The notes under the pieces: model-generated | The model's input: the letters and a program-made list of their open reading frames with translations, nothing else | What the model was told of the DNA's origin: nothing | Database searches by the model: none | Assembly: GCA_028554795.2 (NCBI GenBank) | Contig: CM068828.1 | Location: forward strand, 14,994,814 to 15,058,813 | Reading direction: 5' to 3' | Length of the DNA: 64,000 bases | Source: Sinohyriopsis cumingii | Taxonomy: Eukaryota > Mollusca > Bivalvia > Unionida > Unionidae | Shown: one piece after another, positions 1,546-33,579 of the stretch | Position numbering within the stretch: the first letter of the stretch is position 1 | Layout of the letters: the number at the start of each line of letters is the position of its first letter | Position numbers and translations under genes: made by a program

Positions 1546-1579
1546 GATCCCGTCGTCTTCGCCAGGAATGCCTTACACA

Positions 1580-17059: not shown

Positions 17060-17261
17060 TATCTCTCTGTACGGTACCCATGGCTAGAGGTAGATGTCTC
17101 CCAATATGGTAACCCCTGGCGAGATGTATCTATCTCGTCAGATTACAACCCTGGGCGATAAGTGGTTCTTTTTCCATGAGGCAACCCTGGATAACAGGCA
17201 GTTATCTTTCCATATCGTGACATTAGGCGAAAGGTAATTACCCCTCGATTTAGTAACCTGG
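17060..17261. repeat. Degenerate minisatellite at the element insertion site
   Basis: About five diverged units of roughly 40 bp built on a CTGGCGAGAGGTAGTTATCTCC-like theme, each with a GGTAAC(C)CTGG junction. The array continues on the far side of the 16.3-kb element (33575-33625), so the element inserted inside it. Confidence 0.6.
17257..17261. repeat. Left target-site duplication CCTGG
   Basis: CCTGG directly precedes the left terminal inverted repeat and directly follows the right one (33575-33579). Polinton-class integrases make 5-6 bp duplications. A 6-bp CCTGGA reading is also possible because the element itself starts with A. Confidence 0.7.
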
Positions 17262-17518
17262 AGCAGCAGAGAGACTGAGCCCACCAACCACTTCGTTAAA
17301 CAGGACCATCTATCGAAAACATTTCTGATAGAAGTTCTTATTTCACAAAATAACCCTTCTATCCAGAAACTATGATGACTAAATCCTCTTTTCTGGCTAG
17401 AAGGATTATTTCGACAGCGATAACTCACTATAAAAAATGTTTCTTCGCGGGGTGACGTCGACGACGACGTTGGTGGCTCAGTCTCTCTGCTGCTATCATG
17501 TAAAATATTTTAGGATTT
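17262..17518 (+). repeat. Left terminal inverted repeat (257 bp)
   Basis: It matches the complement of 33318-33574 with about six mismatches. It has internal symmetry: the outer 27 bp (17262-17288) recur inverted at 17469-17494 with one base missing, and a 21-bp arm pair (17349-17369 and 17390-17410) forms a hairpin with a 20-nt loop. Confidence 0.9.
17349..17410. repeat. Nested hairpin within the left TIR
   Basis: The arms 17349-17369 and 17390-17410 (AATAACCCTTCTATCC... against ...GGCTAGAAGGATTATT) pair with two mismatches around a 20-nt loop. The mirror copy is in the right TIR at about 33426-33487. Confidence 0.8.
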
Positions 17519-17550
17519 CTGTTGTGAATTAAAAATTTAAGTTAACAATA

Positions 17551-18204
17551 ATGGCCAACATCGGAGAAGCACATTCTGCTAGACTAGCTCGAGAGCGACT
17601 AGAAGCAATAAAAAAATTTCTTCCTGTACGAGATAGTGTAAGACAAAAATTACAGGCACGGCAGCAAGCACAAGTTGAATTTGCAACAGGTGCAGAAGAA
17701 TTATTTAAACCCGTTACAACAACTACTGAAAAAGCTGCTGAAAAGGCTGCGATGGTTGCTGAGCGAGCTTTACTGGGAGAGCCTAAGACTTATGAAGATG
17801 TGGCGGATGTTGAGGAGCGGGAGCGGAAGAGAAAGAAACAGGAAGAGAAACGGAGAAGGGGTATTCTTCCATTGATAAAGGAAACAAGAGAGATTTTACG
17901 AACGCTTCCAGCTGATATAGCTGCAGCTCAACCTCCGCCCGTCGTTGCAGCTCAACCTCCGCCCGTTGCTGAAGTCGCCGAAGCTGCTGCACCCAAAGCA
18001 GCAAAGGGAATTGTTGAACTAACTGCAAAATTTAATTCGGATTTTGTTAAACTCCTTAAAAACACACCAGAGGAAAATTTACCTGAATTGATATTAGATG
18101 GTTTATATAAAAGGGAAAAAATTTTAAAAGAGAAATATAAGTCCACGGCTGATGACAATTTTATTAGGTGGGTGTATCGTGTATACTACAAAAAAAGTGG
18201 TTAA
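17551..18204 (+). CDS. Ala/Glu-rich coiled-coil protein, candidate virion/scaffold component
   Basis: First gene inside the left TIR, starting at an ATG 33 bp from the TIR edge. Its 217 residues are Ala/Glu/Arg/Lys-rich, with likely helical coiled coil at about 10-120 and a highly charged ERERKRKKQEEKRRR run. Two AAQPPPV repeats follow (about 128-141), then a more ordered C-terminal part ending RWVYRVYYKKSG. No known domain is recognised. It is the leader of the virion gene block and overlaps the next frame by 53 bp, so a structural or scaffold role is a guess. A frameshift between this frame and the next, making one longer protein, cannot be excluded. Confidence 0.6.
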   Translation: MANIGEAHSARLARERLEAIKKFLPVRDSVRQKLQARQQAQVEFATGAEELFKPVTTTTEKAAEKAAMVAERALLGEPKTYEDVADVEERERKRKKQEEKRRRGILPLIKETREILRTLPADIAAAQPPPVVAAQPPPVAEVAEAAAPKAAKGIVELTAKFNSDFVKLLKNTPEENLPELILDGLYKREKILKEKYKSTADDNFIRWVYRVYYKKSG

Positions 18205-18568
18205 ATCTAACGATCTAAAATTTGCAAAAATTATAAGGGCAATGCAGGAGATTGACAAAAGTAGACGAGGAGGGCTTCCACCTCCCTATTCACCGCCATC
18301 AGAGAAGCGTCCAGATGAAAGAGGTGATGTTCTCGAAGATCTTGGCTTTGAGACTACAGGTAGTGGTCTTGGTGGCCACATTCCCTGCCCTGATAATGTC
18401 ATCAATGATGTATCACGGCTAGAAGTTCTCATTGGGGGGAAACGTGCCGGAAATAATTCGCCAGAAATAATTAATGAAGCTGCTGATATCTGTCAACGAC
18501 TATTTCGTGGTGGCATCATGGATTCCCATATCTACAGAGAACTTATTGATGAGCTAATCGACGATTAG
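18152..18568 (+). CDS. Conserved small protein of the virion block
   Basis: A 138-residue frame overlaps the end of the preceding gene. An internal ATG at 18242 would give a shorter product without most of the overlap. The middle has a LPPPYSPP stretch, which contains a PPPY late-domain-like motif. The C-terminus RLEVLIGGKRAGNNSPEI followed by a helical tail resembles a domain I recall from Polinton-like elements of cnidarians (pattern L...I.G...AGNN). Its function is unknown. Its position before the capsid genes suggests a virion or assembly role. Confidence 0.55.
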   Translation: MTILLGGCIVYTTKKVVKSNDLKFAKIIRAMQEIDKSRRGGLPPPYSPPSEKRPDERGDVLEDLGFETTGSGLGGHIPCPDNVINDVSRLEVLIGGKRAGNNSPEIINEAADICQRLFRGGIMDSHIYRELIDELIDD

Positions 18569-18589
18569 AGAAATAATAATAATAAATAA

Positions 18590-19027
18590 ATGATAGTACA
18601 TAATTCTCAACGCAGACCAGCCATGGTCAGAGTGATAAATTCAAGACTACCTGTATACAGAATGACTTACGGAGACGGATTTGGCGATGTTGTTACGGGT
18701 TTATTTGCGGGAGTGGCACCTAAGTCAATACCGATCGTAAAACAATTAGGCATGAAAGCCTTTGATGTTATTAAAGATAGCGCTATTAACACTGCTGGTA
18801 GCGCTGCCGGTAAAGCATTCACGGCGATCAAGGGCAGAATAGCACGACTGATGCGCAGAAGGAAAACCCCGCGAGTAACGTTACCAGCCACCGCAGACAT
18901 GCCAGCGGATGTCAGTAGCGTAATAAACGAAGCTGCAAATCAAAAGCTAGCCGCGCTAGTCAACGAAATTCCTGAACAAATAAATACGAGTTTGGTCGCG
19001 GGAAGTGGTCTTCGTTTTAGACGATAA
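18590..19027 (+). CDS. Small basic virion-associated protein (adenovirus pVI/pX-like guess)
   Basis: The frame is 145 residues, with a plausible start at 18590 or at the internal ATG at 18623. It has a Gly/Ala-rich, amphipathic segment GDGFGDVVTGLFAGVAPK and a following IKDSAINTAGSAAGKAF, then a basic cluster GRIARLMRRRKTPR. Small proteins of this composition lie just upstream of the capsid gene in Polintons and are compared with adenovirus minor core or membrane-active proteins. The assignment rests on composition and position only. The stop overlaps the start region of the capsid gene (true ATG 19041). Confidence 0.5.
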   Translation: MIVHNSQRRPAMVRVINSRLPVYRMTYGDGFGDVVTGLFAGVAPKSIPIVKQLGMKAFDVIKDSAINTAGSAAGKAFTAIKGRIARLMRRRKTPRVTLPATADMPADVSSVINEAANQKLAALVNEIPEQINTSLVAGSGLRFRR

Positions 19028-19040
19028 TTTTTACAATAAA

Positions 19041-20417
19041 ATGTACAAATATGAGTCCGACACAGCATTCGCCATAACCGAGCCAGCCTCTAAAAATGTA
19101 TCAGTGCGTGATTATCAGTATTACTGTTATGACGCACGAGAACCAAACAAGTGGGGGCGAATTGAACTTCAGGTTCAGGATACCAGTAGATATTTCCTGC
19201 CCGCTGAAGCATTTATTGAGGTAGAAGGGAAAATTATAAGAGACAATAACACAGATTATGGAGCCGGTGTTAAAGTCGGTTTTGTCAACAACGGAATTAT
19301 GGCGTTGTTTAACAGCGCTGTTTATATGATTGATGGAAAAAATATCGAAGCGATTCAGAATGATGTCGATGTTGCCACAACAATAATTGGTTTAGCGAGA
19401 TATTCTGATGATTATACAAGATCATCTGGTCCATCAATGATGTTTACCAAGGATACTTCTAATAATCCCGACAGTGATCAGTACAATATTAGACGACCAA
19501 GAAACCATGCCGACAACGCTGACGCTGATATCGAAGACATGATTGTTGATGCTAATTCTAACTTTAATTTAGGTTTCGCTCCACGCAGACAAATGCTAAA
19601 GGGTAATAGCAGAAATTTTTCATGTGCGATTCCGTTGTCTCATATCTTTGGATTTTGCCGGGAGGTCAGAAAGGTAATTTTCGGAGCAAAACATACAGTC
19701 GTGCTTGTTAGAAAACCCGATGACAATGATGCGATATGGCGACCTATGGGTGACCCTGGTAAAGTAGAAATAACAAAACTATCACTGTGGATGCCAGTGA
19801 TGTCCCCTGCAATTGCCCAAGAACAACAGCTGCTTTCTTTCATGGATCAGGGCAGTAAAAAGCTGCTATCGTGGCTTACAACAACCTCAGATAGTATTCA
19901 AAGTAACGTCAATGGTATATTCACGTGGAATATAGCAACACAGCAGGGGGTTTCAGCGCCGCGACATATTTTCATTGCTTTTCAGGATGCTGCACGAGTA
20001 GGTAATCAAGTACATTCGCATATGATATTTGATCGACTTGGTGTCACTGACGTTTCTCTGAAAATAAACGGGCATCAAGAACAAGCTGAAAATATACAAT
20101 TAAATTTTGATAACAACCATGTTGCACGTGCATATCACTGATTGACAAAGTATCTAGCGCGTGATCTAAATATCGACACTGGTTTGCAAATATCACAGTT
20201 GGGTTTTATATCTCATTATCCAATCTATTGCTTCTCGCTGGAGTATCTTGATTTAACCAGACAGTCTGTCGTTGATATTCACTTTCGGGCTACCGTGAAT
20301 AGAGGAGCTATAGCTAATTACAGGGCCATCGCGGTCATACTTTCCGATAAAGCAATGTTACTTGAGGGTGCTGGCGGCCGAATGATAGTCGTTGATGCAC
20401 CAGTAGAAAACCTTTAG
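19041..20417 (+). pseudogene. Major capsid protein (double jelly-roll type), interrupted by in-frame TGA
   Basis: I take the ATG at 19041 (MYKYESDTAF) as the start, not an upstream GTG. The frame runs 366 codons to a TGA at 20139-20141 and then continues in the same frame for 91 codons to TAG at 20417, total about 458. Features recalled from Polinton capsid proteins include the N-terminal FAITEPASKNVSV, YFLPAEAFIEVEG, the FNSAVYMIDGKNIE segment, APRHIFIAFQDA, and after the TGA SHYPIYCFSLEYLDLT and NYRAIAVIL. The region after the stop contains conserved strands, so truncation should inactivate the protein unless the stop is read through. The gene sits at the centre of the virion block, 63 bp before the next gene. 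Confidence 0.85.
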
Positions 20418-20480
20418 GTTTTCCAAAAACCTGTAACATTGTTTTAATAGCGCAATTAGATCAATATCGTATTAAATAAA

Positions 20481-20924
20481 ATGTCATACAGTCATGTTAA
20501 TGTCACACTGACTCCTGGTCAGGTGAAGAAATTACAATCGAAAAACGCGAGCACATGTGGGACATCAATAACGTTAAAACATGATCAGCTAGCGGGTGGT
20601 CCAAACAAACTGTCATTGACCAAAACTCAGCTAAAACATTTCAGCAGCGCGAGGCAGGGCACGACTGGAGTTCGACTTGATCTCTCTCCAGCCGCGATCA
20701 AAGATATGGTCAAAAAAACCGGCGGAATACTTCCATTTCTTCCAATAATTGCCGCAGCACTAGCACCAGCAGCAGCCGCAGCAGCAAAGGCAGCCGCGTT
20801 AGGAGCAGTTGGAATCGCTGCTGGAATGGCACTAAAGAAAGCCACCGGGAAAGGATACAAAAAAAAGGGATCCGGTCTCAGACTACCGGGAACTCCGGCG
20901 TCATGGTACCCAAAAAAGTTTTAA
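20481..20924 (+). CDS. Minor virion protein with membrane-active segment
   Basis: The 147-residue protein has LTPGQVKKLQ and LTKTQLKHF repeats, LDLSPAAIKDMVKKTGGILPFLP, then a strongly hydrophobic Ala-rich stretch (about 90-122) and a basic Gly/Lys tail. The repeated LT..Q..(K/R)L pattern followed by a GG-I-LP-hydrophobic segment is a hallmark of a small virion protein family found next to capsid genes in Polinton-class elements. By analogy with adenovirus pVI/pX it may be packaged in the virion and cleaved by the protease whose gene overlaps it. That role is inferred. Confidence 0.65.
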   Translation: MSYSHVNVTLTPGQVKKLQSKNASTCGTSITLKHDQLAGGPNKLSLTKTQLKHFSSARQGTTGVRLDLSPAAIKDMVKKTGGILPFLPIIAAALAPAAAAAAKAAALGAVGIAAGMALKKATGKGYKKKGSGLRLPGTPASWYPKKF

Positions 20925-21394
20925 GTGTTTTCGAAAACGCTAGCGTTTCCACACCGTTGTTGAAGCTTCCAGCGAGTAATTTTGATTTGCTTGATGCTGT
21001 TGCGCAGTTACGTATAAAGAATTTCAGAGGTGTATTTATGCGAGATGAATTACCAGCACGACCGAATAGCACAGAAACCGGTATTATTAATCTCGACAAC
21101 AAGGAAGGTCCTGGAACTCACTGGGTTGCTTACGCGATCGATCCACGTGGAATTATCTATTTCGATTCGTACGGGCTAGCACCGCCAGTTGAGTTTTTCA
21201 GGTACGTCCAAAGATTTTCCAACATTCCAGTTTGGCAGTCAACGTTACCAACACAAACACTGATTGATCCTCCGATATGCGGTCGACAAGTACTGAATGT
21301 TCTTGATGCGATCTCGAAATCAGCGAGTCCTCCTCACAAAGTCGTGCATGAATACACGTCGAAAAATCATCGATTTTTCCAATCACATCTGTGA
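20903..21394 (+). CDS. Adenain-type cysteine protease (maturation protease)
   Basis: 163 residues, about the usual length for Polinton/adenovirus proteases. Catalytic candidates are His73 in GTHWVAY, Asp88 in YFDSYG, Gln118 and Cys126 in PPICGRQVLNV. The LPARPNSTETGIINLD region before the His is typical. In the family this enzyme cuts capsid and core precursors during virion maturation. It overlaps the minor virion protein gene by 22 bp and ends 31 bp before the fibre-like gene, indicating a compact operon-like block. All catalytic residues are present and the frame is intact. Confidence 0.88.
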   Translation: MVPKKVLSVFENASVSTPLLKLPASNFDLLDAVAQLRIKNFRGVFMRDELPARPNSTETGIINLDNKEGPGTHWVAYAIDPRGIIYFDSYGLAPPVEFFRYVQRFSNIPVWQSTLPTQTLIDPPICGRQVLNVLDAISKSASPPHKVVHEYTSKNHRFFQSHL

Positions 21395-21425
21395 TTTCCA
21401 AATTTAAACAACCACGTAACAGATA

Positions 21426-22430
21426 ATGGTTGATATTTACGGAAGATCAGGCAGAACCAAGGAAGAAAAAAAAGATATCGATTTATCAGCGTATGCGACT
21501 AAAGATGAAATTGATGATCTTTTAAATCTGACGGGGATAGATCCAGATGAGGTTGTTATTTTTCAGGACAGGCACGGCAAGCTAAAAACCAGTAACATTA
21601 AGTGGAATGACATAATTCGCAGGGTTATTGGAGCTGTCACGGACAACATCGTTGTATTCACTGACAGCGGCAGAATCAGAGATTCGTCGATATCAATTGC
21701 GATGCTGCGAGATGATGCACAAAAAGTCTCAACGGAGCGTGTAGCGAAGACCGGTGATACAATGACAGGTGAACTCAACATGAACAGCAACAAAATAACC
21801 GTTCTAAAAGATCCGGAAGGTCCCGAAGATTCCGCAAACAAACAATATGTAGATACCGTTGACGGTAAACTAACTACGTTGCGGGTTGAGTATGATGTTC
21901 ACGTGGGCGCGTTTGCAAGATTTCGAAGAAACTTTCAAAATACTGATGAGACCGTGGATAAGTTCTTTGGGACTCCTCCAGTCATCGACATGAAACTTTC
22001 TGAAATCAAGACCAACACTGACACGATCAAACAAACACATCAAGATATCGTATCGGGTATTCCTGAGATCGTTAACAAAACCAGTCTGATTAAAGTCCCC
22101 ACTGGAGTTACCCCCGGGCATATCACCAACATCGTATACACGGTATCATCGGGATTCGCAACATGGTCCCGACAAAATAATACTATCAAATACACAGCAA
22201 CAGCCACTGGCGTGTACAGGTTGTCTGTGTTTTCCGCCGCTAAATTTGAAATCTTCACAACATATCCCTGGAGACATTCCACCGACAGATTTTCCGGGGT
22301 TGTAACTATAATACTAAACAGCGGAACCGAAGAAATATTTATACTTGAAGCCGCAGACAAGAAATTAACCGCAACATCCTACTGGTGGTGTTTGGAATTC
22401 GTCGCAGAAACGCCTCAATTGGTTACGTAA
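21426..22430 (+). CDS. Fibre-like protein with phage-tail-type repeat
   Basis: The 334 residues include a phage/viral fibre signature at about 115-142: KTGDTMTGELNMNSNKI followed by ...SANKQYVD. This short repeat is common in trimeric tail-fibre and spike stalks. The N-terminus carries DLSAYATKDEIDDL, which looks like a short triple-stranded attachment segment. The C-terminal 110 residues are rich in beta-prone sequence (TGVYRLSVFSAAKFE) and may be a head domain. The protein is probably displayed on the virion surface. Which receptor it binds, if any, cannot be told from sequence. Confidence 0.7.
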   Translation: MVDIYGRSGRTKEEKKDIDLSAYATKDEIDDLLNLTGIDPDEVVIFQDRHGKLKTSNIKWNDIIRRVIGAVTDNIVVFTDSGRIRDSSISIAMLRDDAQKVSTERVAKTGDTMTGELNMNSNKITVLKDPEGPEDSANKQYVDTVDGKLTTLRVEYDVHVGAFARFRRNFQNTDETVDKFFGTPPVIDMKLSEIKTNTDTIKQTHQDIVSGIPEIVNKTSLIKVPTGVTPGHITNIVYTVSSGFATWSRQNNTIKYTATATGVYRLSVFSAAKFEIFTTYPWRHSTDRFSGVVTIILNSGTEEIFILEAADKKLTATSYWWCLEFVAETPQLVT

Positions 22431-22442
22431 ATAATAATAAAA

Positions 22443-23057
22443 ATGAAATCAGCATCAATGACCACGTCATCAATGACAACATTAGATGCCCAGCAATACC
22501 GGTATGATCAGGTACGCGAATGGCAATCAACGTTGAAAAACACCATTGACAGATGCGCAACAAAAATAAAAAAATACAAACGGCGTGTAACCGTGCTAGA
22601 CACAATAGTGTATTCGGTATCCGCGGTAGTTGCATCCACGGGTGTGTTATTATCAGCGCTGACACCAGTAACTGCTGCAATCGCGATCACAATCACAATT
22701 TCAGCATCAACGACGATCGCAGGAGTTGCTAATATTATCGCGAAAAAAATATCTTCGTGCGCGATAACAAAATTACACGAGTATACGCGGGTAGCCAACG
22801 CGGCCAACAGCGCCTACTCGAAATTGTCCTCGTTGATATCATCCAGCCTTGACGACACAACAATATCAGATTCCGAATTCACGTTGATGTCCGGTATATA
22901 CAACGATTACGAGCGCGCAAATAATCTTAATTTGAAAACGATGAAGAACAATAATGACGGAGATACTTCAGCATCGAGCACTACTCGACATAGCCGCGAA
23001 TACAGCTCCGGTAAAAACATCAATGATATCAATATCCTCGACGCAACCAGAATTTAA
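22443..23057 (+). CDS. Two-segment membrane protein of the virion block
   Basis: 204 residues. A helical N-terminal region (about 15-60) is followed by two hydrophobic segments (about 57-78, VYSVSAVVASTGVLLSAL, and 79-100, AAIAITITISASTTIAGVA), then a helical segment with SDDTTISDSEF-like spacing (ISDSEF at about 139-144) and a Ser-rich tail. The I.DSEF element after a pair of membrane segments resembles a conserved small membrane protein I recall from cnidarian Polinton-like elements. Its role is unknown. The last 104 bp overlap the penton-like gene in another frame. Confidence 0.6.
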   Translation: MKSASMTTSSMTTLDAQQYRYDQVREWQSTLKNTIDRCATKIKKYKRRVTVLDTIVYSVSAVVASTGVLLSALTPVTAAIAITITISASTTIAGVANIIAKKISSCAITKLHEYTRVANAANSAYSKLSSLISSSLDDTTISDSEFTLMSGIYNDYERANNLNLKTMKNNNDGDTSASSTTRHSREYSSGKNINDINILDATRI

Positions 23058-24417
23058 TGTTAATTTTCCAACTGCAATTCCAGTTACCGAAATAGCGCTG
23101 GCACAATTACGAGTATATCACAGTTGGCCCATCATCAGGTCGACATTATTTCACGGACAATCGCCGAATAATTCATTTGTATTTTCATATCAGAATAAAC
23201 CCAGTGCCGATGGCACCGACGGCACACCAGATTGGAATACTATTACACTTCCCACTGGGAGTTATCAGATAGAAGAAATCAACAAGGAAATACAGCGCCA
23301 AATAAAACGTGTCACCGGAAAAGAATCAAAGATCAGCATATCAGCACACGAGCCAACGTTGTCAACGATCATCGAAATCTCAACGCCGGGTTACCACGTA
23401 GACATTTATAACAGTTCAATCAGAACAGTATTAGGATGGCCTAAAAATCCACCACCAACACCACCGATAGCACCTGCACCCGAAAAGTCTGATTACATGA
23501 CTGACTCGCAGTCATATCACACAATTACACCGCTACACCGAGAACGTCTTGATGAGATCCGCAAGGATAATTTACAAGGTAAGATTTTTCCTGTCGCGCG
23601 CGGTGTCGATATCATATTTAATTTTACTCGTGACGACGACGCAGGGTGGGTGCGTGTTGGAGTTACTATGTATCTGAACGACATCGTTGAGTACCTGAAA
23701 GGTATTAATGACGCGCATGGAACGCACCGAGGGTATCTACGGCAACACTTCCAAGAACATATATCCGCGGTGCACACCGCGATGATAGGTTCACGCGGAG
23801 AAATTATTAAACAAATTGAGGTATTAAATCAACTTGCCTCAGATATGGAGTATATCAACAAGCACGTGGTTCAGGCGGTAATCGGCAGCATATCCCCCGA
23901 TAAACAAAAGTTTCTGAATAAGTACTCGCTGACCGAAGCTGAACTACCGAATTTTAAATTACCAGGATATGTTTCCCCGGTCATCTTACGAAAATACGTC
24001 ACTGATATCGTCGATGAATACTTCGATGACATACTTGCACAATGGAAAAAAATACTACCAGAACCCGTTATCTTAGCACACAATAATTCCACAGCGAGCG
24101 ATGGCCGGCATATTTCTCCGGGCATCGTAAATATCACTGATGTCGTCGCGGTCAATCTTGTATGTGATGTCATTGATGGCAGTTACAACATAGACACGAC
24201 AACATCGAATCAAGCCCAGCAAGGGTTTATACTATACTCATTTACTCCTAGAGAACCGCCTGTATTTTTGATTGTGCAAGAACCAATCAATCCAGTATTT
24301 CTGCGGTGTCATAACCCTACGCTGACAAGGATGAATTTTAAAGTCACTGACCAACAACATAGACTGTTGGACCTGCGTGGCGAGACGGTTAGTATTAATT
24401 TGCTGGTGAAATCTTAA
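22954..24417 (+). CDS. Penton-like minor capsid protein
   Basis: 487 residues. The first third has WNTITLPTGSYQIEEINKEI, a pattern I associate with Polinton penton proteins, where a ready-made strand-turn-helix precedes a jelly roll. The C-terminus REPPVFLIVQEPIN ... DQQHRLLDLRGETVSINL matches the conserved end (...D..G..L.D.RGE.I.I.L) of the family. The middle (about 240-370) is helical and has no recognised domain. In the family it occupies the icosahedral vertices, where the fibre attaches. Overlap with the membrane protein gene shows tight packing. Confidence 0.78.
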   Translation: MTEILQHRALLDIAANTAPVKTSMISISSTQPEFNVNFPTAIPVTEIALAQLRVYHSWPIIRSTLFHGQSPNNSFVFSYQNKPSADGTDGTPDWNTITLPTGSYQIEEINKEIQRQIKRVTGKESKISISAHEPTLSTIIEISTPGYHVDIYNSSIRTVLGWPKNPPPTPPIAPAPEKSDYMTDSQSYHTITPLHRERLDEIRKDNLQGKIFPVARGVDIIFNFTRDDDAGWVRVGVTMYLNDIVEYLKGINDAHGTHRGYLRQHFQEHISAVHTAMIGSRGEIIKQIEVLNQLASDMEYINKHVVQAVIGSISPDKQKFLNKYSLTEAELPNFKLPGYVSPVILRKYVTDIVDEYFDDILAQWKKILPEPVILAHNNSTASDGRHISPGIVNITDVVAVNLVCDVIDGSYNIDTTTSNQAQQGFILYSFTPREPPVFLIVQEPINPVFLRCHNPTLTRMNFKVTDQQHRLLDLRGETVSINLLVKS

Positions 24418-24485
24418 AGGATTTTCGTCGTGAAAATACGAAGTATTTTTTAGGGACTTTCAATTAATAATATCATATCATAATA

Positions 24486-24806
24486 ATGTCCAAAAAATCT
24501 TCGAATTACCAGAAGTATGATGATGATGATGAAGATGAAAATGTCTCCGACATTTCCACTGACAGTGAAACACAAAGTGTTTCCGACGCTAGCGTAGAAA
24601 CACAATGTGTTTGTGAATCACAAAGTGATTTTGACAGTGATTTTGTTGTCAGTGATGAAGATGTCTCTGACAGTGATTTCGCTGACAGTGACAGTGAAAC
24701 ACAAAGTGATTGTGAATCACAAAGCGATTCCGATGATAGCACTGTGGGAAACGCTAACGACATCACCATCAGCGACAGTACTGTCGTAATAAATTATATT
24801 AAATGA
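24486..24806 (+). CDS. Acidic Ser/Asp-rich low-complexity protein
   Basis: 106 residues, dominated by Asp, Ser, Glu, Gln and Val in SDSETQSD-like repeats. It begins with a Lys/Ser segment and a DDDDEDE run. No domain is recognised. Because the DNA is repetitive (GTGATTGTGAATCACAAAG-like), length may vary between copies. It lies at the 3' end of the virion block. Similar acidic tails bind basic proteins or DNA-mimic partners, but nothing here proves that. Confidence 0.45.
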   Translation: MSKKSSNYQKYDDDDEDENVSDISTDSETQSVSDASVETQCVCESQSDFDSDFVVSDEDVSDSDFADSDSETQSDCESQSDSDDSTVGNANDITISDSTVVINYIK

Positions 24807-24822
24807 ACGCGAAAATAATAGT

Positions 24823-25143
24823 ATGTATCAACACGTGAAATGTTCCATCGTTGACAAGCGCGCGCTTGAAGAATTCATCCGAAAAATATTTACCGGAAAT
24901 CATTTCCCTGGCATTGTTAAAATAATCATCGATAAGTACGGCAATGATGATTTTTTACTGACAGATTTTCAGCTGAAGCAATTCCGCGAAAACAATATCA
25001 CGATGATTACTTGTGACGCAGACCAAATCCTCAATGTTGCTCACTCGTGCATTTCACGGGATCATCTCGATAAGATACTGCAGCGAAAATCCTTTGGATT
25101 TTTAAAAATGTCTTTGACATTTCCATCCCTTAGGATTTTTTAA
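24823..25143 (+). CDS. Hypothetical protein, 106 aa
   Basis: No domain is recognised. Predicted helical segments (DKRALEEFIRKIF, FPGIVKIIIDKYG, LTDFQLKQFRENNI) look like a small folded domain. The last 15 or so residues (KSFGFLKMSLTFPSLRIF) fall in a palindromic AAAATCC...GGATTTT repeat, so the natural end may be just before it. It is the last plus-strand gene of the virion half. Confidence 0.45.
   Translation: MYQHVKCSIVDKRALEEFIRKIFTGNHFPGIVKIIIDKYGNDDFLLTDFQLKQFRENNITMITCDADQILNVAHSCISRDHLDKILQRKSFGFLKMSLTFPSLRIF
25086..25103. repeat. AAAATCC-NNN-GGATTTT palindrome, copy 1
   Basis: A short perfect palindrome. Sister copies at 26721-26737 and 30821-30837 share the same arms with different centres. 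Confidence 0.7.
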
Positions 25144-25995: not shown

Positions 25996-26279
25996 ATTTA
26001 TATATATTTTTAAATATTTAAAATAAATAAAAATAAACAGCAGTCATTAATGAGCGGTTAGTCTTATACTGGCTTATGGGTCTCCACGAGGTCCTTTCAG
26101 ACTTGATTTTGTCACTTTGTGGTTTGAAACACTTTGTGTTTTAGGTGATTTTTTTATTTTTCAGATTTTTTTATCTCAGTCTTACAGAGCTTTTCCATAG
26201 CTTCTCGGCATCCTCGTGATCGGTTCTTTTAGCCATTTTGTTTTTTGACCGTAGAGCTTATACATCCAATGACTGCTGT

Positions 26280-26400
26280 TTATTTTTGGGAGCTCCGTGT
26301 GCATATATCCCCCCCAAATCGAATCCCAGGGGTAAAACGTACCTCCACGATTCGTGGAGGAGGATAATGCACACAAGGCCCCTGCTGGAGCCCCCAACTA
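26280..26400. repeat. Large interrupted hairpin
   Basis: The outer arms TTGGGAGCTCCGTGTGCAT (26285-26303) and ATGCACAC...GGAGCCCCCAA (26367-26397) are inverted copies with an insertion on one side. An inner perfect stem CCTCCACGA-T-TCGTGGAGG lies at 26342-26360. It could be a structured RNA, a cruciform or a small foldback insertion. Confidence 0.5.
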
Positions 26401-26424
26401 TTATAAAAACCCTATAAATCGGGC

Positions 26425-26520
26425 CCGTCGAACAATATGTCCGTAACGAGGATTCGAACATGACATTTGATAGCGCCGGGACGAAAGTCAAACGCGTTAT
26501 CATTGTGCCACTTTCCAATC
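26425..26520 (-). other. tRNA-like sequence (degenerate, pol III box-like)
   Basis: The minus strand has an A-box-like TGGCACAATGATAACG and a B-box GTTCGAATCC with appropriate spacing. It also has a TTTGA...TCAAA stem that could be an anticodon arm, but with a loop of 18 nt. The T-stem and acceptor do not pair well, so this is not a standard functional tRNA. It may be a decayed tRNA gene, a tRNA-like structure or an internal pol III promoter. Confidence 0.35.
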
Positions 26521-26720
26521 TGATAATACAGGGTTTAAAAAATATCATATACTGATCTACCTGTGAAATCAGGTAGTTATTTACTTCCTTGTGCAGAAAA
26601 TCGTCTGCTCGCACCTGTAAAGTGTTATAGCGCTCTGTTGACAAAGTCACCTTGACAGCGTCACCTTGACAAGGTCACCTTGACAGCGTCAAGGGGGAAA
26701 TAATTGTATCATTGACTTAA

Positions 26721-26737
26721 AAAATCCGAAGGATTTT
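26721..26737. terminator. Palindrome at the end of the HNH gene
   Basis: AAAATCCGAAGGATTTT is a perfect palindromic hairpin that touches the stop codon of the minus-strand HNH gene. It is the second member of the AAAATCC repeat family and could act in transcript ending. Confidence 0.45.
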
Positions 26738-27270
26738 CACACAGTCACTGCAGAGTTATCTCCGTTTGGAAAATTCTCGTGATAACGAAATATAATTTTC
26801 TGATTATTATACTCTTTTGACAACGCGGATTTATTTATTTTTTCTGCAATTCTTCGTACCGAAGCCGTACAAATATCAAAATGCTTACTGGCTGCATTCA
26901 TCGATTGAAGTTCTCTCTCTTCATTCGTATCTAAATTTATAGATATAACTCTCCTGGCGATCTTATTGTTACGGCCAGTATTACCAGCCTTGCAATTTTC
27001 GCTCTGCGTCACAGCTCTCAGATTGGATAAATTATTATTAAGTTTATCTCCATCAATATGATCAATTACAAAGCCGTTTTTGATCTCTCCGCGGAAACAC
27101 TCGAACACAAACTTGTGATTAAGATACTTCTTTTTCCCAACAGCAAATCTTAGATAACCAGTATTACTAACAACACCAACTGGTTTTTTCAACCTGCTAT
27201 TTCTAACTATTCCCTGTCGTGATGCTTCATAATTTTTAATGGTTGGATGTGAGACAAATTCTTGGCTCAT
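26737..27270 (-). CDS. HNH homing-endonuclease-like protein (NUMOD/HNH type)
   Basis: 177 residues, intact. It starts with SHPTIKNYEASRQGIVRNSR (NUMOD4-like beginning), then a HNH_3-type core HKFVFECFRGEI...FVIDHIDGDKLNNNLSNLRAVT at about 71-106, and ends with a DNA-binding repeat NLDTNEERELQSMNAASKHF (NUMOD1-like, about 125-152). Free-standing nucleases of this type are mobile genes in phages and large DNA viruses. Here the gene sits inside the Polinton-like element on the minus strand, between the structured intergenic region and the small zinc protein gene. It may be a selfish passenger or may serve in element DNA cutting. Confidence 0.85.
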   Translation of the reverse strand: MSQEFVSHPTIKNYEASRQGIVRNSRLKKPVGVVSNTGYLRFAVGKKKYLNHKFVFECFRGEIKNGFVIDHIDGDKLNNNLSNLRAVTQSENCKAGNTGRNNKIARRVISINLDTNEERELQSMNAASKHFDICTASVRRIAEKINKSALSKEYNNQKIIFRYHENFPNGDNSAVTV

Positions 27271-27339
27271 TTATATAATAATGTATTTGTCTAATTTATA
27301 ATTTGTCTGAAAACCTAGTTATATAATCACTCTCGGATT

Positions 27340-27576
27340 TTAGCGCGTCTCCGTTACTTTTTTATTGTAATATCGCTTGAGTTCACGGTATCGTTTCTCC
27401 CCACACCCCGCACATAATTGTGTTTTACCCCTGACACCAATGCCACATCGCAGGCAACGAATAGGTCCTGTGCTTCCTCGTTTGATGCTCTGTATATGTT
27501 CACCGCAGAATTCCTTCCTGCAGGGCTTACCACAGACTGTTACGGATCCAACTTTTAACCATCTGCAGTTGTTCAT
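27340..27576 (-). CDS. Small Cys-rich zinc-binding protein
   Basis: 78 residues with regularly spaced cysteine pairs: CGKPCRKEFCGEH, CLRCGIGV and CAGCGEKRY. This probably folds as two zinc knuckles or a zinc-ribbon pair, with a basic C-terminus (YRELKRYYNKK). A role in nucleic-acid binding or gene control is inferred. The ATG (27576) faces the start of the large plus-strand fusion gene across a 46-bp AT-rich gap. Confidence 0.55.
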   Translation of the reverse strand: MNNCRWLKVGSVTVCGKPCRKEFCGEHIQSIKRGSTGPIRCLRCGIGVRGKTQLCAGCGEKRYRELKRYYNKKVTETR

Positions 27577-27622
27577 TGTATATATAATATTTTCTTATTT
27601 AAATATTTGTCTTAAATATAAC
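27577..27622. promoter_or_regulatory. Divergent AT-rich promoter region
   Basis: The 46 bp between the two divergent start codons are almost pure A/T, with TATATATAAT and TTAAATATAA blocks that could be TATA-like elements for each direction. Confidence 0.45.
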
Positions 27623-28498
27623 ATGGAAGAGTTTTCGAAATTATCCGCAGTTGGCGCTGGGAGATTCGATCTTGACAGGCTAAACCCGGATCCACGACGA
27701 CGTCATCTAACTGATCTGTTTAATATTATCAACGAGGGTAAAAAAGAATTCAGCGACGATGGCGCATCTCATGCATGGTCGTCATTTAAAATTATCCGCG
27801 ACGCTGACGATGTCAATGTCGTTGACGATGTCAACGATGAGAACATCATCGATGCTACAATGACTGATGCCCGAGCAAAAACAATTATTGATTATATTGA
27901 TTTTCATCAACTTGACAAGAAATATTTTTTCAGAATAAAATTTATTGTCAACGTCGATGACGATACGTGGATTATCCGTGACAAACTCGATCCTGTTCTT
28001 GCTAACGGAAAGACAATTCTGTTAAGCAGCAATTGTAAACCAGGAATGCTGACCGGAATTGATAAACCATATTACGCTCGAGCGTATCCTGTAACCGCAG
28101 TCATTTATGGAATATATCCTGTAAAAAAAACAAAAATTGATAAACTCGCTCCGATGCGAATGACTGCGTCGACGTTGAATTGTGTAGCCGAGCGAGTAAT
28201 GGAACATTTTAAAAACGCAAAACGAGGAAACGGTTTAACCGATCTGCGACGTGAAAAAATAGCATCATGGGGTGAATCGGTTAAGAATACCGGGGCAACA
28301 ATAAATGATGTTACTGCGCTATCAAGTAAATTAAAATGTTCAATAACAGTAAAAACACTAACCGGAGAAATATTATACAGTTCGAAGCATTATAAAAAGT
28401 CAGGAACACCGATTGAAATTACTGATCATAATTCGCACGCGTGGACTGATGCGGTTACAATATTTCCACGAGACCGTGTTGTCAAGTTTTATTCTTGA
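27623..28498 (+). CDS. Fusion replication protein, part 1: N-terminal domain
   Basis: The ATG at 27623 (MEEFSKLSAV) opens a 291-codon frame ending in TGA at 28496-28498. The next part (28499 onwards) is in the same frame, so this TGA is an in-frame nonsense codon in a longer gene. Residues 60-90 are Asp-rich with a DVNVVDDVNDEN repeat. The rest is a folded-looking domain with FRIKFIVNVDDDTWIIRDKL and, near the end, ITVKTLTGEIL and ITDHNSHAW. No exonuclease motif of ordinary PolB (DxE, NxxxD) is apparent, so this N-terminal domain replaces or precedes the polymerase part. Its function is unknown. Confidence 0.6.
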   Translation: MEEFSKLSAVGAGRFDLDRLNPDPRRRHLTDLFNIINEGKKEFSDDGASHAWSSFKIIRDADDVNVVDDVNDENIIDATMTDARAKTIIDYIDFHQLDKKYFFRIKFIVNVDDDTWIIRDKLDPVLANGKTILLSSNCKPGMLTGIDKPYYARAYPVTAVIYGIYPVKKTKIDKLAPMRMTASTLNCVAERVMEHFKNAKRGNGLTDLRREKIASWGESVKNTGATINDVTALSSKLKCSITVKTLTGEILYSSKHYKKSGTPIEITDHNSHAWTDAVTIFPRDRVVKFYS

Positions 28499-30136
28499 AA
28501 CATATACGAGGTTATTTACGCGCTGAGTAAAACCGACCCTGTGTCGGTGTGGTTATTTAGCAGCTGTGAAGATTCCGAGTATGATCAATTTGTGAGACCC
28601 AACGGAGAATTATACAGAACAGAATCGTTGCAACAACAAATGAAAAAACTCGCAAAAACGTATATGAGAGATGCTAGCGATGAGCAGTTATTGGTTAATT
28701 GTTTTACAGTTCCAAGTGTTGCCGCTCACGCCGCCAAAGAAAGAAATTCGTGGAGACCAATCCGAAGTCAGTTTCTTTCGGATATACAGCTAAGTTGTGT
28801 CGAGTATGGTCATGGCGGGTTGTGGAATACCCGATATGACTACCGGGATATGATTTCCGTGGATATGATTGCCTGCTACCCAGGAAGCTTTCTTGGGAAC
28901 GGCGAGTGCCGCGAATACTTTGCGCGGTTTGGACATCCCACGAACTCGATGACACGAGTCGCCGCAAACGGCGTTTTACCCGATGCTGACCTGACAGGAT
29001 TTGCTCGTGTGACTTCGTTTGAATTCGCCACGGGACTTCATCCGATTTGTTATGTTTGGTTTGGCAGACATTTCGTCGAAAAGTGCTGGGTACCAATAGT
29101 GTTATTGCGATACATGCGTGACAGCGGTATACTGGTATCGTTGACTGTCAGCGAAGCAATCATATGTTATCGACCGCAGACATCAGTTTGGTTGCCAACA
29201 CCCGAGCATGTTACCCTCGAAGAAGTTATCGGCGAGTATGCACGAGAGTGTCCAAATACCCCGATGGATGTCATTGTCAGTGAGGCTCCTAAAATTCTCA
29301 ATTTTAAACTCAAAAACAGTGAAATCACAGCGAAAGATCTTGGACGAAGAATAATCGGTAAATTTACTCAGGGTGCAGCATTTGATCATAAAATGCATCA
29401 CTCGCGGTTGATTATCGATGAAGCTGAATTGGATTTTATAATCGCCGACGCGGTTGCCAGAGACATATTTTTTAACAGGGAGGATGTGTTCTTGTCCGAC
29501 GGGAAAAAGTTGGGCACAATTGTAAGTTATATCGACGGAGAATCGCCTCAATACACACATTTGAGATCTTCAGTGCTGGCTTATGTTTCTATAAATTTGT
29601 TATCGATGGTAAATCGATTTCCTGGCCCATACCATACTGGTAACGCAGTCAGAGTTGCCACGGATTCATTTTATATCAATAAAAAATATTCAGAATCACT
29701 GACCGGTATAATGAAATTCTGCGGCGGAGATGAATGGAGTTCGTGGAGAATAAAAGCGGAGATGTTACACGAGTATTGTGAATCCGCTGATGTTGCAACA
29801 GAGGATGATTATTATAAATCAACGATGCCAGAAATATCTTCCTCACCATCTGTGGATGATCCAATCACCAGACACAAAACTGTTTATTTGAACGGGCCGG
29901 GCGGGTCTGGTAAAACAACTCGAGCGATTGAATTATTTCGAAATTCAGATATGATTGTGCTAACACCTACACACAGACTTGCCAGAGAGATGAAACAACG
30001 AGGAGTCAGTTCTTGTACTTATCACAGCTTTTTCAAATACAGCGGCGGTACGTGGACGCCAGATCGAATGGGAACAAAATATATCAATGATATAATAATT
30101 TGGGATGAGATATGTACGGTACCGCTGAAACGTTAA
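28499..30136 (+). pseudogene. Fusion replication protein, part 2: PolB-like palm and SF1 helicase N-half
   Basis: The frame runs on from the TGA at 28496 to a stop at 30134-30136; a GTG near 28541 could only re-start it inefficiently. Motif-A-like SVDMIACYPGSF occurs at about 28853-28890. GRRIIGKFTQGAAF (29344-29385) stands where motif B would be. Then LRSSVLAYVSINLL (29564) and VATDSFYI (29653-29676) match the region before motif C and motif C itself, with Ala in place of its first Asp. This suggests a divergent palm of the phi29/Polinton PolB class. It continues as an SF1 helicase: Walker A GPGGSGKTTRA at 29896, LTPTHRLAREM, Walker B IIWDEICTV at 30097. A frameshift near 30120 then breaks the frame. 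Confidence 0.75.
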
Positions 30137-31155
30137 AAACATTTCTTGATTGGCTGTTAACGAAAAATACTGCAGTGATTATGTGCGGCGATCACGGTCA
30201 ACCACCTCCGTTTGTCGGTGCATCTCCGCATGATTGGCTGAGGAATTTTGTTGATTATCACGAAGAAGTGTCTGATGATTACCGAGCACTTGATGCAGCG
30301 CTGAAAGAATTTAAAACACTAATCAGGCTACAACCGAATAAAATTCAATGTGAAATCATGCGCGAGATGATTCCTGAAACTTCGATGAGTGACTTTTTAC
30401 GAGTGTGGAAACCAGACGATTTGATAGTGGCAAGTAGAAAGATAGTCAGAGACACACTTCAACAAGAGCTATTTCGGTTGCAACAAAAAAAGTTTCCAAT
30501 GCTGCCAACGCCGTTATGTTATAGACCAGCTGATACGCGGTTACAAAATATAGATGTTGATATTCCAGGAAAGACAGAGAAACAGAATTTAGTATTGAAT
30601 GATATTGTGTTAGTTGACATCGATGCTGTCGAGGATGCACTAGCGATGAATAAATCCCCGTGGACGCTAGGATACGCTATGACAATTCATTGTTCTCAAG
30701 GACTGACTATTTCAGATACAACTGTCTGGATCATTGATGATCGAATCGAATGGTCAAACTTAGTCTACTTAGCGGTGTCCAGAGTCAGAAGAATATCTCA
30801 ACTGCGAAGAATTGTCTTGAAAAATCCTTCGGATTTTCATTCAAACGCTGATAGCGATGAAAACAACAGCATCACCGATGGTGATGTAATAAGAAAAAAA
30901 CTCACCGGTTACAAACAGAGTGACAAAAAAAATAATCGCGATTTTGATCTTGACGATGACTTCCTTGTTGCGCTGAAACAACAACAGAATAATCACTGCG
31001 CGAGCTGTAACTGCATAATGCTATGGCAGTATTCGAATAAAAATTCAAGACAATTTACCGTAGACAGAAAAGATAACAGTCGCGGTCATACACGTGATAA
31101 TGTCATGTTGACCTGTCTTGAGTGTAATCGACGTCGGGGGGCCAGTGCTAGTTAA
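30112..31155 (+). pseudogene. Fusion replication protein, part 3: helicase C-half and HNH nuclease
   Basis: Homology resumes one frame over, just past Walker B (ETLKTFLDWL at about 30125). Visible helicase motifs: motif III VIMCGDHGQPPP, motif V GYAMTIHCSQGLTI, motif VI VYLAVSRVRRIS. The overall type is SF1, RecD/Pif1/TraI-like. After an Asp-rich linker (30830-30960) with an AAAATCC palindrome, a C-terminal nuclease-like domain has a CASC pair, FTVDRKDNSRGHTRDNV and CLECNRRRG. That fits an HNH finger with two Cys pairs. The gene ends one base before the integrase stop, so the two genes converge. Confidence 0.75.
30821..30837. repeat. AAAATCC-NNN-GGATTTT palindrome inside the fusion gene
   Basis: This copy lies within the reading frame at the helicase-HNH linker. 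It contributes LKNPSDFHS-like residues without breaking the frame. Confidence 0.65.
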
Positions 31156-31156
31156 G

Positions 31157-32110
31157 TCACTTCAGTGATTTTGGCGGCAATTGTGTGTCCTCGGGAATTA
31201 CCTGAAGTTGCTCACGTGTGAATCCGCGTTGAGGAGCAGTTGAATCCAACCTGTAGATTACTGGTCTGCCAGTGGATCTTGTCACGGTGGATATCTTATG
31301 TGTGGTAACACTCCAAATGAGATCAGTCGCTCTTCGTTTACCACCTTCAAGTTCGCCTGGTTCGTATAAATATCTAACTGTGACACTACCCAACACTGGC
31401 TGTGTTGAAATATTATTTCGTTGTATTTGTATATATTTTTTTGTGATCGCGATGGAAGGTTTCATGTTGGTTGTTCGAGTTATTTCATTATTTAGCGCAG
31501 CTATCACGCTTGGTAATCTTGCAACCCATTCGCGCGATCTCGCATCTTGAATGAATTCTTTCGCGTATTGATATCCAAATAACCGCTCAGCAAGTGTTCC
31601 ATTGAATCGCTCAACAATTGCATGATCACGGTGAATTTCAGTGTGTCCTCGTCGTATGGTGACGTTATGTTGTTTCATCAACGATGATACTGCACCTTGA
31701 AATTCTTTGCCAGGATCAACTTGTAATAAGTTTGGCCATCGCAGAGGTCCTCGCCGATAAATTCTTTCAAACGCAGAAGCAACCTCAGATGCTGTTTTAG
31801 TTGTTAACGGTTCCGCATCTTTGCATCTACTGGCAACATCAACTATGGTTAACGCGTACTTGTATGTGCGTCTTCGGATAGTATCATGTGGCAGAAATAA
31901 TATATCAGCCTGATGAACCTCATTTGGTACACTAACATCGAAATGCGCGAAGTGAATTTGTTTGGGGCGCGGTAGATAAATTTGCCATATTGCCTGTCGG
32001 GATAACCAATTTTTGGCAGTAACCGCCGTAACCTTTGCTGCTTCAGCGAGTTTACTAATTGCTGTGTTACCTCTCCAGTATCCGCCTGGGGAATAATAAA
32101 TCGACTCCAT
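31157..32110 (-). CDS. Retroviral-type DDE integrase (rve)
   Basis: 317 residues, intact. Catalytic candidates are Asp69 in HQADILFL, Asp132 in QVDPGKEFQ and Glu167 in HAIVERFNGTLAER, with 34 residues between the second Asp and the Glu, close to the D,D-35-E spacing. A helical N-terminal domain (SPGGYWRGNTAISKLAEAAKVT) precedes it, and the C-terminus (VRYLYEPGELEGGKRRATDLIWS) looks like the SH3-like DNA-binding domain. In Polintons this enzyme inserts the element with 5-6 bp duplications, consistent with the CCTGG seen here. The ATG shares one base with the stop of the upstream phospholipase-like gene (TAATG). Confidence 0.92.
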   Translation of the reverse strand: MESIYYSPGGYWRGNTAISKLAEAAKVTAVTAKNWLSRQAIWQIYLPRPKQIHFAHFDVSVPNEVHQADILFLPHDTIRRRTYKYALTIVDVASRCKDAEPLTTKTASEVASAFERIYRRGPLRWPNLLQVDPGKEFQGAVSSLMKQHNVTIRRGHTEIHRDHAIVERFNGTLAERLFGYQYAKEFIQDARSREWVARLPSVIAALNNEITRTTNMKPSIAITKKYIQIQRNNISTQPVLGSVTVRYLYEPGELEGGKRRATDLIWSVTTHKISTVTRSTGRPVIYRLDSTAPQRGFTREQLQVIPEDTQLPPKSLK

Positions 32111-32609
32111 TATATACCAGTACCTAACGCTAATTTACCTTTCATTGCGGATTTTATCAACCAGGATGCTAACTTTTCCTTGAAAGATTTATCAGGGATG
32201 GCATTTAACGCATGAATTAATTTCACGTCCGCGAGATGGCGCTGTTGCAAATCTTTGCTTCGCTAAGCTACATCATGAGCATGGCACGCGCTATCAATAG
32301 CGTTTATCGGATACTCACCGGGTTTTGGTTGATCCTGAGCATCAAGTCTGATATCAAGTCGGGTTCCTGGACCACAGTAATTATATCCTGGAAGATGTTT
32401 TTCTCCTGGGTATTTAGCCCACGGAGCTCCTGGTAATTTTCCTAACTTGGCTGCGATATCACCTCGGCTTTTTTTAAAATAAATCTAAATTTTTTTGTGC
32501 CGCATCGTTCACACTTGCCTGTAAGCGCTTGTCGATTATTTTTTGTTGTAATTGTTGTTGTATCCGTAGTTGGGGTACGTGCTCGGCATTTCACACAATA
32601 TAAATCCAT
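32110..32609 (-). pseudogene. Zinc-ribbon plus phospholipase-A2-like protein, broken (cryptic gene)
   Basis: From an ATG at 32609 the minus strand reads a small zinc-ribbon: CVKCRART near residue 5 and CERCGTKKFRF near residue 35. A frame change in an A7 tract (T7 on the plus strand, 32469-32475) follows. In the next frame come LPGYNYCGPGTRLD, IDSACHAHDVA (catalytic-type Cys-His-Asp) and, after an in-frame TAG at 32263-32265, RHLADVKLIHAL. The YxYCGPGT/ACxxHD order matches viral-type phospholipase A2 domains known from parvovirus capsids and some Polintons, where they breach membranes. Two lesions make it dead here. Its stop overlaps the integrase start by one base. Confidence 0.75.
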
Positions 32610-32618
32610 ATTTATTTT

Positions 32619-33317
32619 ATGATATATCTAATGTCAAAGACATTTCAAATGGAGATCACTGACTTTTCCGCGACAAAGCGACGAGAACCAATCAAACATA
32701 ACTCAGTGCTATCGAATTCTATCCGAATGATTATCATAGGTCCATCTGGGTCGGGTAAGACACAGTTGTTACTTAATTTGATAATGAAGTGGATGAAGTG
32801 GGATAAATTATATTTGATAGCCCCGTCTGTGGACGATCAGCGGTGTTATCAAGTGCTAAAAGATTTTAACGAGAGTGCAAAAGCAATCAGTGAGAATGAT
32901 GAAAACGTAGTTGAATTCATAACTGATGTCAATGATGCACCTGGCATTGATGACATCGATGGATCAATTAACAATCTAGTTGTGTACGACGACGTGATGT
33001 TGGATAAACAAACAAACCCGGCGAGAATATTTTCCCGTGGGCGGCATAAAAACACTGATGTCATTTATGTGACACAACGTTATACACAAATTCCGAAAGT
33101 GATCAGAGACAATTGTAACATCCTTGCAGTGTTCAACGGAGTTGACGTACACACGTTACGAAATATTCATCAGACTTGGTGCAGCGGTGACATGGACATA
33201 AATAAATTTAAAAATTTCTTTAGTCATGCTCAACGAAAACCACACGGGTTTGTGACGATAAATTTACATGATCCTCGGACACGATATCGAGTTGGGTTAG
33301 ATACATTTTTTAACTAA
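32619..33317 (+). CDS. FtsK/HerA-type packaging ATPase (A32-like)
   Basis: 232 residues, intact, with ATGs at 32619 and 32631 as candidate starts. Walker A is GPSGSGKT at 41-48, Walker B VVYDD at 121-125, and a GRHKNTDVIYVTQRY sensor/arginine region follows at 141-155. The C-terminus NNCHTLR-like middle and RTRYRVGLDTF end match Polinton ATPases. In the family it moves the genome into the capsid. It is the outermost gene before the right TIR. Only 9 bp separate its start from that of the divergent phospholipase-like gene, so their promoters must overlap the coding ends. Confidence 0.92.
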   Translation: MIYLMSKTFQMEITDFSATKRREPIKHNSVLSNSIRMIIIGPSGSGKTQLLLNLIMKWMKWDKLYLIAPSVDDQRCYQVLKDFNESAKAISENDENVVEFITDVNDAPGIDDIDGSINNLVVYDDVMLDKQTNPARIFSRGRHKNTDVIYVTQRYTQIPKVIRDNCNILAVFNGVDVHTLRNIHQTWCSGDMDINKFKNFFSHAQRKPHGFVTINLHDPRTRYRVGLDTFFN

Positions 33318-33574
33318 AAATCCTAAAATATTTTACATGATAGCAACAGAGAGACTGAGCCACCAACGTCGTCGTCGACGTCACCCCGCAAAGAAACATT
33401 TTTTATAGTGAGTTATCGCTCTCGAAATAACCCTTCTAGCCAGAAAAGAGGATTTAGTCATCATAGTTTCTGGATAGAAGGGTTATTTTGTGAAATAAGA
33501 ACTTCTATCAGAAATGTTTTCGATAGATGGTCCTGTTTAACGAAGTGGTTGGTGGGCTCATACTCTCTGCTGCT
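33318..33574 (-). repeat. Right terminal inverted repeat (257 bp)
   Basis: Inverted partner of 17262-17518, ending CTCTCTGCTGCT. About six differences by eye. It contains the same nested hairpin (about 33426-33487). The ATPase stop codon lies at 33315-33317, immediately before its inner edge. Confidence 0.9.
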
Positions 33575-33579
33575 CCTGG
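33575..33579. repeat. Right target-site duplication CCTGG
   Basis: Direct copy of 17257-17261. Downstream, the degenerate minisatellite that precedes the element resumes (33580-33625). Confidence 0.7.

What the first reader, a model, noticed from the sequence alone, without database searches (positions are those of the whole stretch)
17262..33574. 16.3-kb Polinton-class element with a non-standard replication module
Seen: paired 257-bp TIRs, CCTGG target duplication, capsid, penton-like, adenain, ATPase and DDE integrase genes in one block. Known: canonical Polintons/Mavericks pair these with a protein-primed PolB that has Exo I-III motifs. Here that polymerase is missing and a PolB-like/SF1 helicase/HNH fusion is in its place. 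Inference: this is a distinct lineage of capsid-encoding mobile elements that replicates by another route.
Basis: partly seen in the sequence, partly recalled or inferred. Interest (0 to 1): 0.88.

Follow-up and report, generated by a model that had tools for sequence, protein, structure and literature searches.

The report
Capsid-encoding transposon with polymerase-helicase fusion
This is one copy of a large, recently active family of virus-like mobile elements in an animal genome, probably a freshwater mussel, which replaces the usual Polinton polymerase with a shortened polymerase joined to a helicase, a design so far reported mainly from viruses of microbes.

Summary
The element is real: 257-bp terminal inverted repeats (6 mismatches), a CCTGG target duplication, a double-jelly-roll capsid gene, an adenain-like protease, a packaging ATPase and an rve integrase. 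The penton call is unproven. The repeats recur in the 2.9-Gb host genome: among 40 scored copies there are 12 facing pairs, nine of 16.0-16.6 kb; 11 of 12 have exact 5-bp duplications. The fusion gene is in 14 of 15 repeat-anchored stretches, with dN/dS well below 1.

The interpretation needs correcting. The protein-primed polymerase is not missing but derived: probable terminal-protein-like and OTU-like folds, phi29-type palm without exonuclease, SF1 helicase, HNH. That is the published 'Tlr1-like helicase' (pPolB-S1H) of polinton-like viruses, transpovirons and Tlr1. Protein-primed replication remains the best guess.

What appears new is the setting: a young, multi-copy pPolB-S1H plus rve-integrase element in an animal, beside a separate family of canonical Polintons with long open PolB frames. 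I place it as a new variant of a known kind.

The parts
17257..17261 (.). left target-site duplication CCTGG
17262..17518 (+). left terminal inverted repeat, 257 bp
   Evidence: the 40 scored genomic copies (window's two included) are 93-100% identical
17551..18204 (+). ORF, 217 aa, function unknown
   Evidence: no Pfam match over cut-off
18152..18568 (+). ORF, 138 aa, function unknown
   Evidence: not scanned against Pfam
18590..19027 (+). ORF, 145 aa, basic, candidate virion core protein
   Evidence: no Pfam match; role inferred
19041..20141 (+). major capsid protein (DJR, PF21738), ends early in this copy; homology runs on to 20414
20481..20924 (+). ORF, 147 aa, hydrophobic/basic with a GGILP stretch like one in the canonical Polinton; candidate minor core protein
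   Evidence: inference
20903..21394 (+). adenain-like cysteine protease
   Evidence: ASFV S273R 4.1e-05, PF00770 0.007 below cut-off
21426..22430 (+). ORF, 334 aa, phage-tail-fibre-like segment; candidate spike/fibre
   Evidence: phrog_2710 3.8e-07; weak PDB tail fibres, E 0.12 and 0.29
22443..23057 (+). ORF, 204 aa, with a long hydrophobic stretch; function unknown
   Evidence: only sub-threshold Pfam hits
22954..24417 (+). ORF, 487 aa, penton candidate (unproven)
   Evidence: PF19254 0.0012 below cut-off; named relatives in unionid mussels; no PDB or penton match
26737..27270 (-). free-standing HNH_3 homing endonuclease
   Evidence: PF13392 5e-15; found in 13 of 15 copies, best pieces 50-93% identical
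27623..28495 (+). replicase piece 1: probable terminal-protein-like fold plus OTU-like protease fold
28640..30136 (+). replicase piece 2: protein-primed PolB palm (motif A VDM, motif C ATDS) and start of SF1 helicase
30112..31155 (+). replicase piece 3: rest of SF1 helicase and C-terminal HNH
31157..32110 (-). DDE integrase (rve), no chromodomain hit
32619..33317 (+). A32/FtsK-like genome-packaging ATPase
33318..33574 (-). right terminal inverted repeat
33575..33579 (.). right target-site duplication CCTGG

Best explanation
The element is an integrated, now decayed copy of a Polinton-like virus/transposon of the Tlr1 type (pPolB-S1H plus rve integrase) that has multiplied in an animal genome, most likely a unionid freshwater mussel. 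Shown: a TIR-bounded block of about 16 kb with DJR capsid, protease, packaging ATPase, DDE integrase and one replicase gene, repeated in many copies with 5-bp target duplications. Inferred: the replicase copies the linear element by protein priming. The terminal-protein domain primes at the TIR ends, the OTU-like domain releases it, the palm without exonuclease synthesises, and the fused SF1 helicase opens the duplex. The integrase then inserts the linear DNA, making 5-bp duplications, and the capsid genes package it into particles.
Confidence: 0.82

Rival explanations
1. A canonical Polinton that lost its own PolB, with the fusion gene captured by chance in this one copy.
For: A decayed canonical Polinton lies 10 kb upstream in the window, and one 53-kb TIR pair holds a canonical PolB.
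Against: The fusion is in 14 of 15 TIR-anchored stretches elsewhere and all 86 scored palm places are 92% or more identical; 0 of 75 scored canonical PolB places lie within 100 kb of them.
Confidence: 0.03
2. The palm is dead and the gene works as a helicase only; the element is copied by host or co-resident Polinton polymerase (a satellite of the canonical Polintons).
For: First Asp of motif C is missing in 34 of 34 rows; its loss was once taken as inactivation (passage). Long open canonical PolB frames are common in the same genome.
Against: Motif A Asp and second motif C Asp are conserved; palm dN/dS 0.17-0.39; PMC11071308 names active polymerases lacking the same Asp.
Confidence: 0.12
3. 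The fusion uses a route without terminal protein (for example helicase-driven, RNA-primed copying).
For: The N-terminal model is of modest confidence and its matches are weak; the middle domain is variable among PLVs.
Against: The palm best matches protein-primed phi29 polymerase; Pol eta little-finger matches fall at the expected place; linear element with long TIRs.
Confidence: 0.1

Closest known systems
Tlr1 element (Tetrahymena) and pPolB-S1H polinton-like viruses
   Same: rve integrase (Tlr1), DJR capsid, packaging ATPase, and a palm-S1H replicase with upstream vOTU and a C-terminal homing endonuclease (passages of PMC11071308; of PMC4642659; of PMC12721341)
   Different: Animal host; C-terminal HNH where Tlr1 has GIY-YIG; Tlr1's middle domain is described as unique while here it weakly matches the Pol eta little finger. 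No direct sequence comparison with Tlr1 was made.
Canonical Polinton/Maverick (same genome, L061-L063)
   Same: Integrase 30% and ATPase 28% identical; MCP related by profile (hhalign probability 97.7, 14% identity)
   Different: The canonical copy has a 1354-aa PolB with DTDS and a chromodomain integrase; the element's palm has no significant BLASTP match to that PolB (best E 3.1); TSD 5 bp here, 6 bp given for Polintons in PMC10045372 (passage)
Transpovirons
   Same: pPolB-S1H replicase (passages)
   Different: They lack the structural module according to the same passages; here capsid, protease, ATPase and integrase are present

Membership tests
Polinton/Maverick (strict sense) | exonuclease-bearing protein-primed PolB | tested here: not met
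   No PF03175 hit in the 17 ORFs scanned, of 20 listed; tblastn of a canonical PolB hits the window only at 4332-7021
Polinton/Maverick (strict sense) | rve integrase | tested here: met
Polinton/Maverick (strict sense) | 6-bp target duplication | tested here: not met
   5 bp in 11 of 12 TIR pairs; the 12th matches at 3 of 5. The TSD of canonical Polintons in this genome was not measured.
pPolB-S1H ('Tlr1-like helicase') elements | protein-primed palm without exonuclease | tested here: met
   motifs
pPolB-S1H ('Tlr1-like helicase') elements | fused SF1 helicase C-terminal to the palm | tested here: met
   AAA_19, RecD/TraA motif matches under cut-off; one of the 15 stretches has a single 1177-aa frame from N-terminus to HNH, and relatives show palm, helicase and HNH in one protein
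pPolB-S1H ('Tlr1-like helicase') elements | vOTU domain with conserved Cys and His | tested here: inconclusive
pPolB-S1H ('Tlr1-like helicase') elements | terminal-protein domain | tested here: inconclusive
Polinton-like viruses / Tlr1 | MCP groups with PLV/Tlr1 MCPs | not tested
   no PLV or Tlr1 MCP sequence was at hand
DJR virus (Preplasmiviricota-like) | DJR major capsid, packaging ATPase, protease | tested here: met
   (protease by a 4e-05 match)
DJR virus (Preplasmiviricota-like) | single jelly-roll penton | tested here: inconclusive

The most novel reading that the evidence does not exclude
An animal lineage that joins the Polinton integration and capsid module to a pPolB-S1H replicase still carrying the ancestral little-finger-type terminal protein: a living intermediate between Polintons and polinton-like viruses, recently mobile and possibly still forming particles with a fibre-like spike, and amplified beside canonical Polintons in the same mollusc genome.
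Probability: 0.35. Interest if true: 0.75.

Novelty: new variant of a known kind. Interest (0 to 1): 0.52.

Why it matters
The passages I read place pPolB-S1H replicases in polinton-like viruses, the ciliate Tlr1 element and transpovirons (PMC11071308), and one survey states that cnidarians were the only animals whose capsid genes fell outside its main Maverick-Polinton cluster (PMC10120064). A young, multi-copy animal family with this replicase, many open frames and a co-resident canonical Polinton family gives a direct comparison of the two replication modules in one host. It also bears on how polinton-like viruses arose from Polintons.

Tried and rejected
Rejected: loss of PolB in a single copy. 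Rejected: CCTGG as chance (11 of 12 pairs have their own exact 5-bp duplication).

Led nowhere: viral-contig scans with the MCP and replicase alignments found no relatives. Penton by Pfam, PDB and profile comparison. MCP profile against PDB sequences; palm against PDB sequences. Foldseek for both models gave no E<0.001. NCBIfam gave only matches under cut-off, among them IS481, IS3 and IS30 transposases for the integrase and RecD/TraA for the helicase piece. Counting TIR ends by pattern and searching the genome with the fibre-like ORF did not complete.

Limits of counts: genome searches score only the best candidates (40 of 1119 for the TIR, 86 of 27544 for the palm, 125 of 48037 for the integrase, 112 of 31541 for the MCP, 75 of 21499 for PF03175), so they are not copy numbers and lean to close relatives. 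In one search I entered all 86 palm and 40 TIR places and one match for each of the 75 PolB places, but only 40 of 125 integrase places, picked by eye with an eye to shared contigs, so the 29 of 86 palm-integrase neighbours is a lower bound and not a random sample. The 15 stretches belong to 15 of the 16 non-window TIRs among L001-L030 that I judged by eye to be right ends; L022 was left out because its element's other end was used. Papers were seen as search listings unless passages are named; none was read whole.

Full report
Observation. The block 17262-33574 is bounded by 257-bp terminal inverted repeats with 6 mismatches and flanked by CCTGG on both sides. Within it, Pfam recognises a double-jelly-roll capsid (PF21738, 1.8e-16), an A32-type ATPase (1.4e-14), an rve integrase (3.3e-07, just under its cut-off), an HNH_3 endonuclease on the minus strand and an AAA_19 (SF1-type) domain. 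The protease matches ASFV S273R at 4.1e-05. The penton assignment could not be confirmed. In this copy the replicase is broken into three pieces and the MCP ends early relative to its relatives.

Genome context. The window lies in a 2.9-Gb, 1138-contig genome whose identity is not given. The best-scoring relatives are mostly unnamed; the best named ones are from the freshwater mussel Sinanodonta woodiana for both MCP and replicase (55% and 51% identity), with Potamilus streckersoni next for the MCP. The window's palm groups with Sinanodonta sequences (support 1.000). Contigs C1-C19 appear chromosome-sized from the coordinates seen. A unionid mussel is therefore likely, but this is inference; no host gene was used to test it.

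Copies. The TIR search scored 40 of 1119 candidates, all 93% or more identical in the direct orientation. Twelve pairs face each other: nine of 15,999-16,624 bp, the window's own 16,313-bp pair included (on C5, C12, C10, C2, C4 twice, C3, C17, C775), two of about 12.5 kb and one of 53 kb. Nine pairs were read for TSDs and three: 11 of 12 have an identical 5-bp duplication, and the twelfth (C13:34.6M) agrees at 3 of 5 bases. The two TIRs of nine pairs differ by 0-6 mismatches, which points to recent insertion. The palm piece: 86 scored places, the window's at 100%, the others 92-96% identical; 70 of 86 have no stop in the matched stretch, and open frames reach 1257 aa. The integrase: 125 scored places at 89% or more. 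The MCP: 112 scored places, others 76-89%, with open frames up to 493 aa, commonly 475-482.

Link of fusion and TIRs. I took 6.8-kb stretches next to 15 right-end TIRs. Replicase pieces are present in 14 of 15, incompletely in some, and the integrase in 15 of 15. The exception, L037, lies in the 53-kb pair; there the stretch holds a canonical Polinton PolB 95% identical to that of L061, while a palm of this family lies 11 kb from the pair's left TIR (C13:3976962). A canonical Polinton nested in the element is the simplest reading; its borders were not examined. Palms with an integrase downstream and convergent: at least 29 of 86 (only 40 of 125 integrase places entered). One of the 15 stretches has one uninterrupted 1177-aa frame from the N-terminus to the HNH.

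Canonical Polintons are a separate family here. PF03175 gave matches at all 75 scored candidates, with frames up to 1363 aa. None of the 75 lies within 100 kb of the 86 listed palms or within 20 kb of the 40 listed TIRs; the decayed one in the window and the one in L037 are not among the 75. One copy read in pieces (L061, L063) has PolB 1354 aa, ATPase, an integrase with a chromodomain, and a 437-aa protein related by profile to the element's MCP. Its proteins are far from the element's: integrase 30%, ATPase 28%, palm no significant match, MCP 14% identity by profile (probability 97.7).

Constraint. Between the window copy and 14-15 others, median dN/dS is 0.45 (N-terminus), 0.33 (palm), 0.21 (S1H-HNH) and 0.37 (integrase), with median dS 0.07-0.12. 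The window copy and several others are decayed, which raises these values. The result favours past function of palm as well as helicase.

Mechanism. Shown: element borders, gene set, multi-copy linkage, TSD length, selection. Inferred: protein-primed copying from the TIR ends, release of the terminal protein by the OTU-like domain, strand separation by the fused helicase, integration by the DDE integrase, and packaging.

Comparison and novelty. In strict terms it is not a Polinton: the exonuclease-bearing PolB is absent and the TSD is 5 bp, against 6 bp given for Polintons (PMC10045372, passage). It works like, and probably belongs with, pPolB-S1H elements such as Tlr1; this rests on the replicase, as no Tlr1 or PLV sequences were at hand for trees. 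Among the titles and abstract starts listed by the searches (20 of 10,230 papers, 20 of 680) I saw none that reports a pPolB-S1H element from a mollusc; Mavericks as such are known in bivalves (PMC10294476, passages). PMC10120064 (passages) says cnidarian MCPs were the only animal ones outside its main Maverick-Polinton cluster. Krupovic 2016 (vew019) is not held and was seen only as a cited title, so an animal example there cannot be excluded.

Relatives of the replicase occur in Elysia sea slugs and in arbuscular mycorrhizal fungi, and an MCP relative in Hydra, so the lineage is wider than mussels; whether the fungal ones carry capsid genes was not examined.

Noticed in passing
window 1-7021 (minus strand): Decayed canonical Polinton: PolB pieces 4332-7021, ATPase pieces 1168-2335 apparently duplicated, further protein 178-1080.
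   Followed up: partly
window 21426-22430: ORF with a phage tail-fibre-like segment (phrog_2710, 3.8e-07) beside protease and capsid: possible spike protein of the element.
   Followed up: partly
G000 C13:3965836-4018988, L037: TIR pair of this family 53 kb apart; it contains a canonical Polinton PolB, apparently a nested insertion.
   Followed up: partly
own genome: Among top-scored copies the MCP differs more from the window's (76-89% identity) than palm (92-96%) or integrase (89-96%); faster capsid evolution, module exchange, or an odd MCP in the window copy.
   Followed up: no
window 33420-33493 and TIRs: Each TIR is itself partly self-complementary (inverted repeat I2; 68-72% match to the reverse complement); possible hairpin at the element ends.
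   Followed up: no
window 26737-27270: Free-standing HNH_3 gene next to the replicase, more variable among copies (best pieces 50-93%) than its neighbours.
   Followed up: no
P0057, P0117, P0131 and others: Replicase relatives filed under Candidatus Thiodiazotropha MAGs; possibly host (bivalve) DNA in symbiont assemblies.
   Followed up: no
P0071, P0075, P0080, P0119: Replicase relatives in arbuscular mycorrhizal fungi form one group (support 1.000).
   Followed up: partly
window 46981-49947: 83 copies of a 36-bp tandem repeat.
   Followed up: no
window 36634-36706 and 57093-57629: tRNA-Pro and an aldehyde dehydrogenase piece in the flank.
   Followed up: no
window 11922-13616: 565-codon open frame without a Pfam match at E 0.1.
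   Followed up: no
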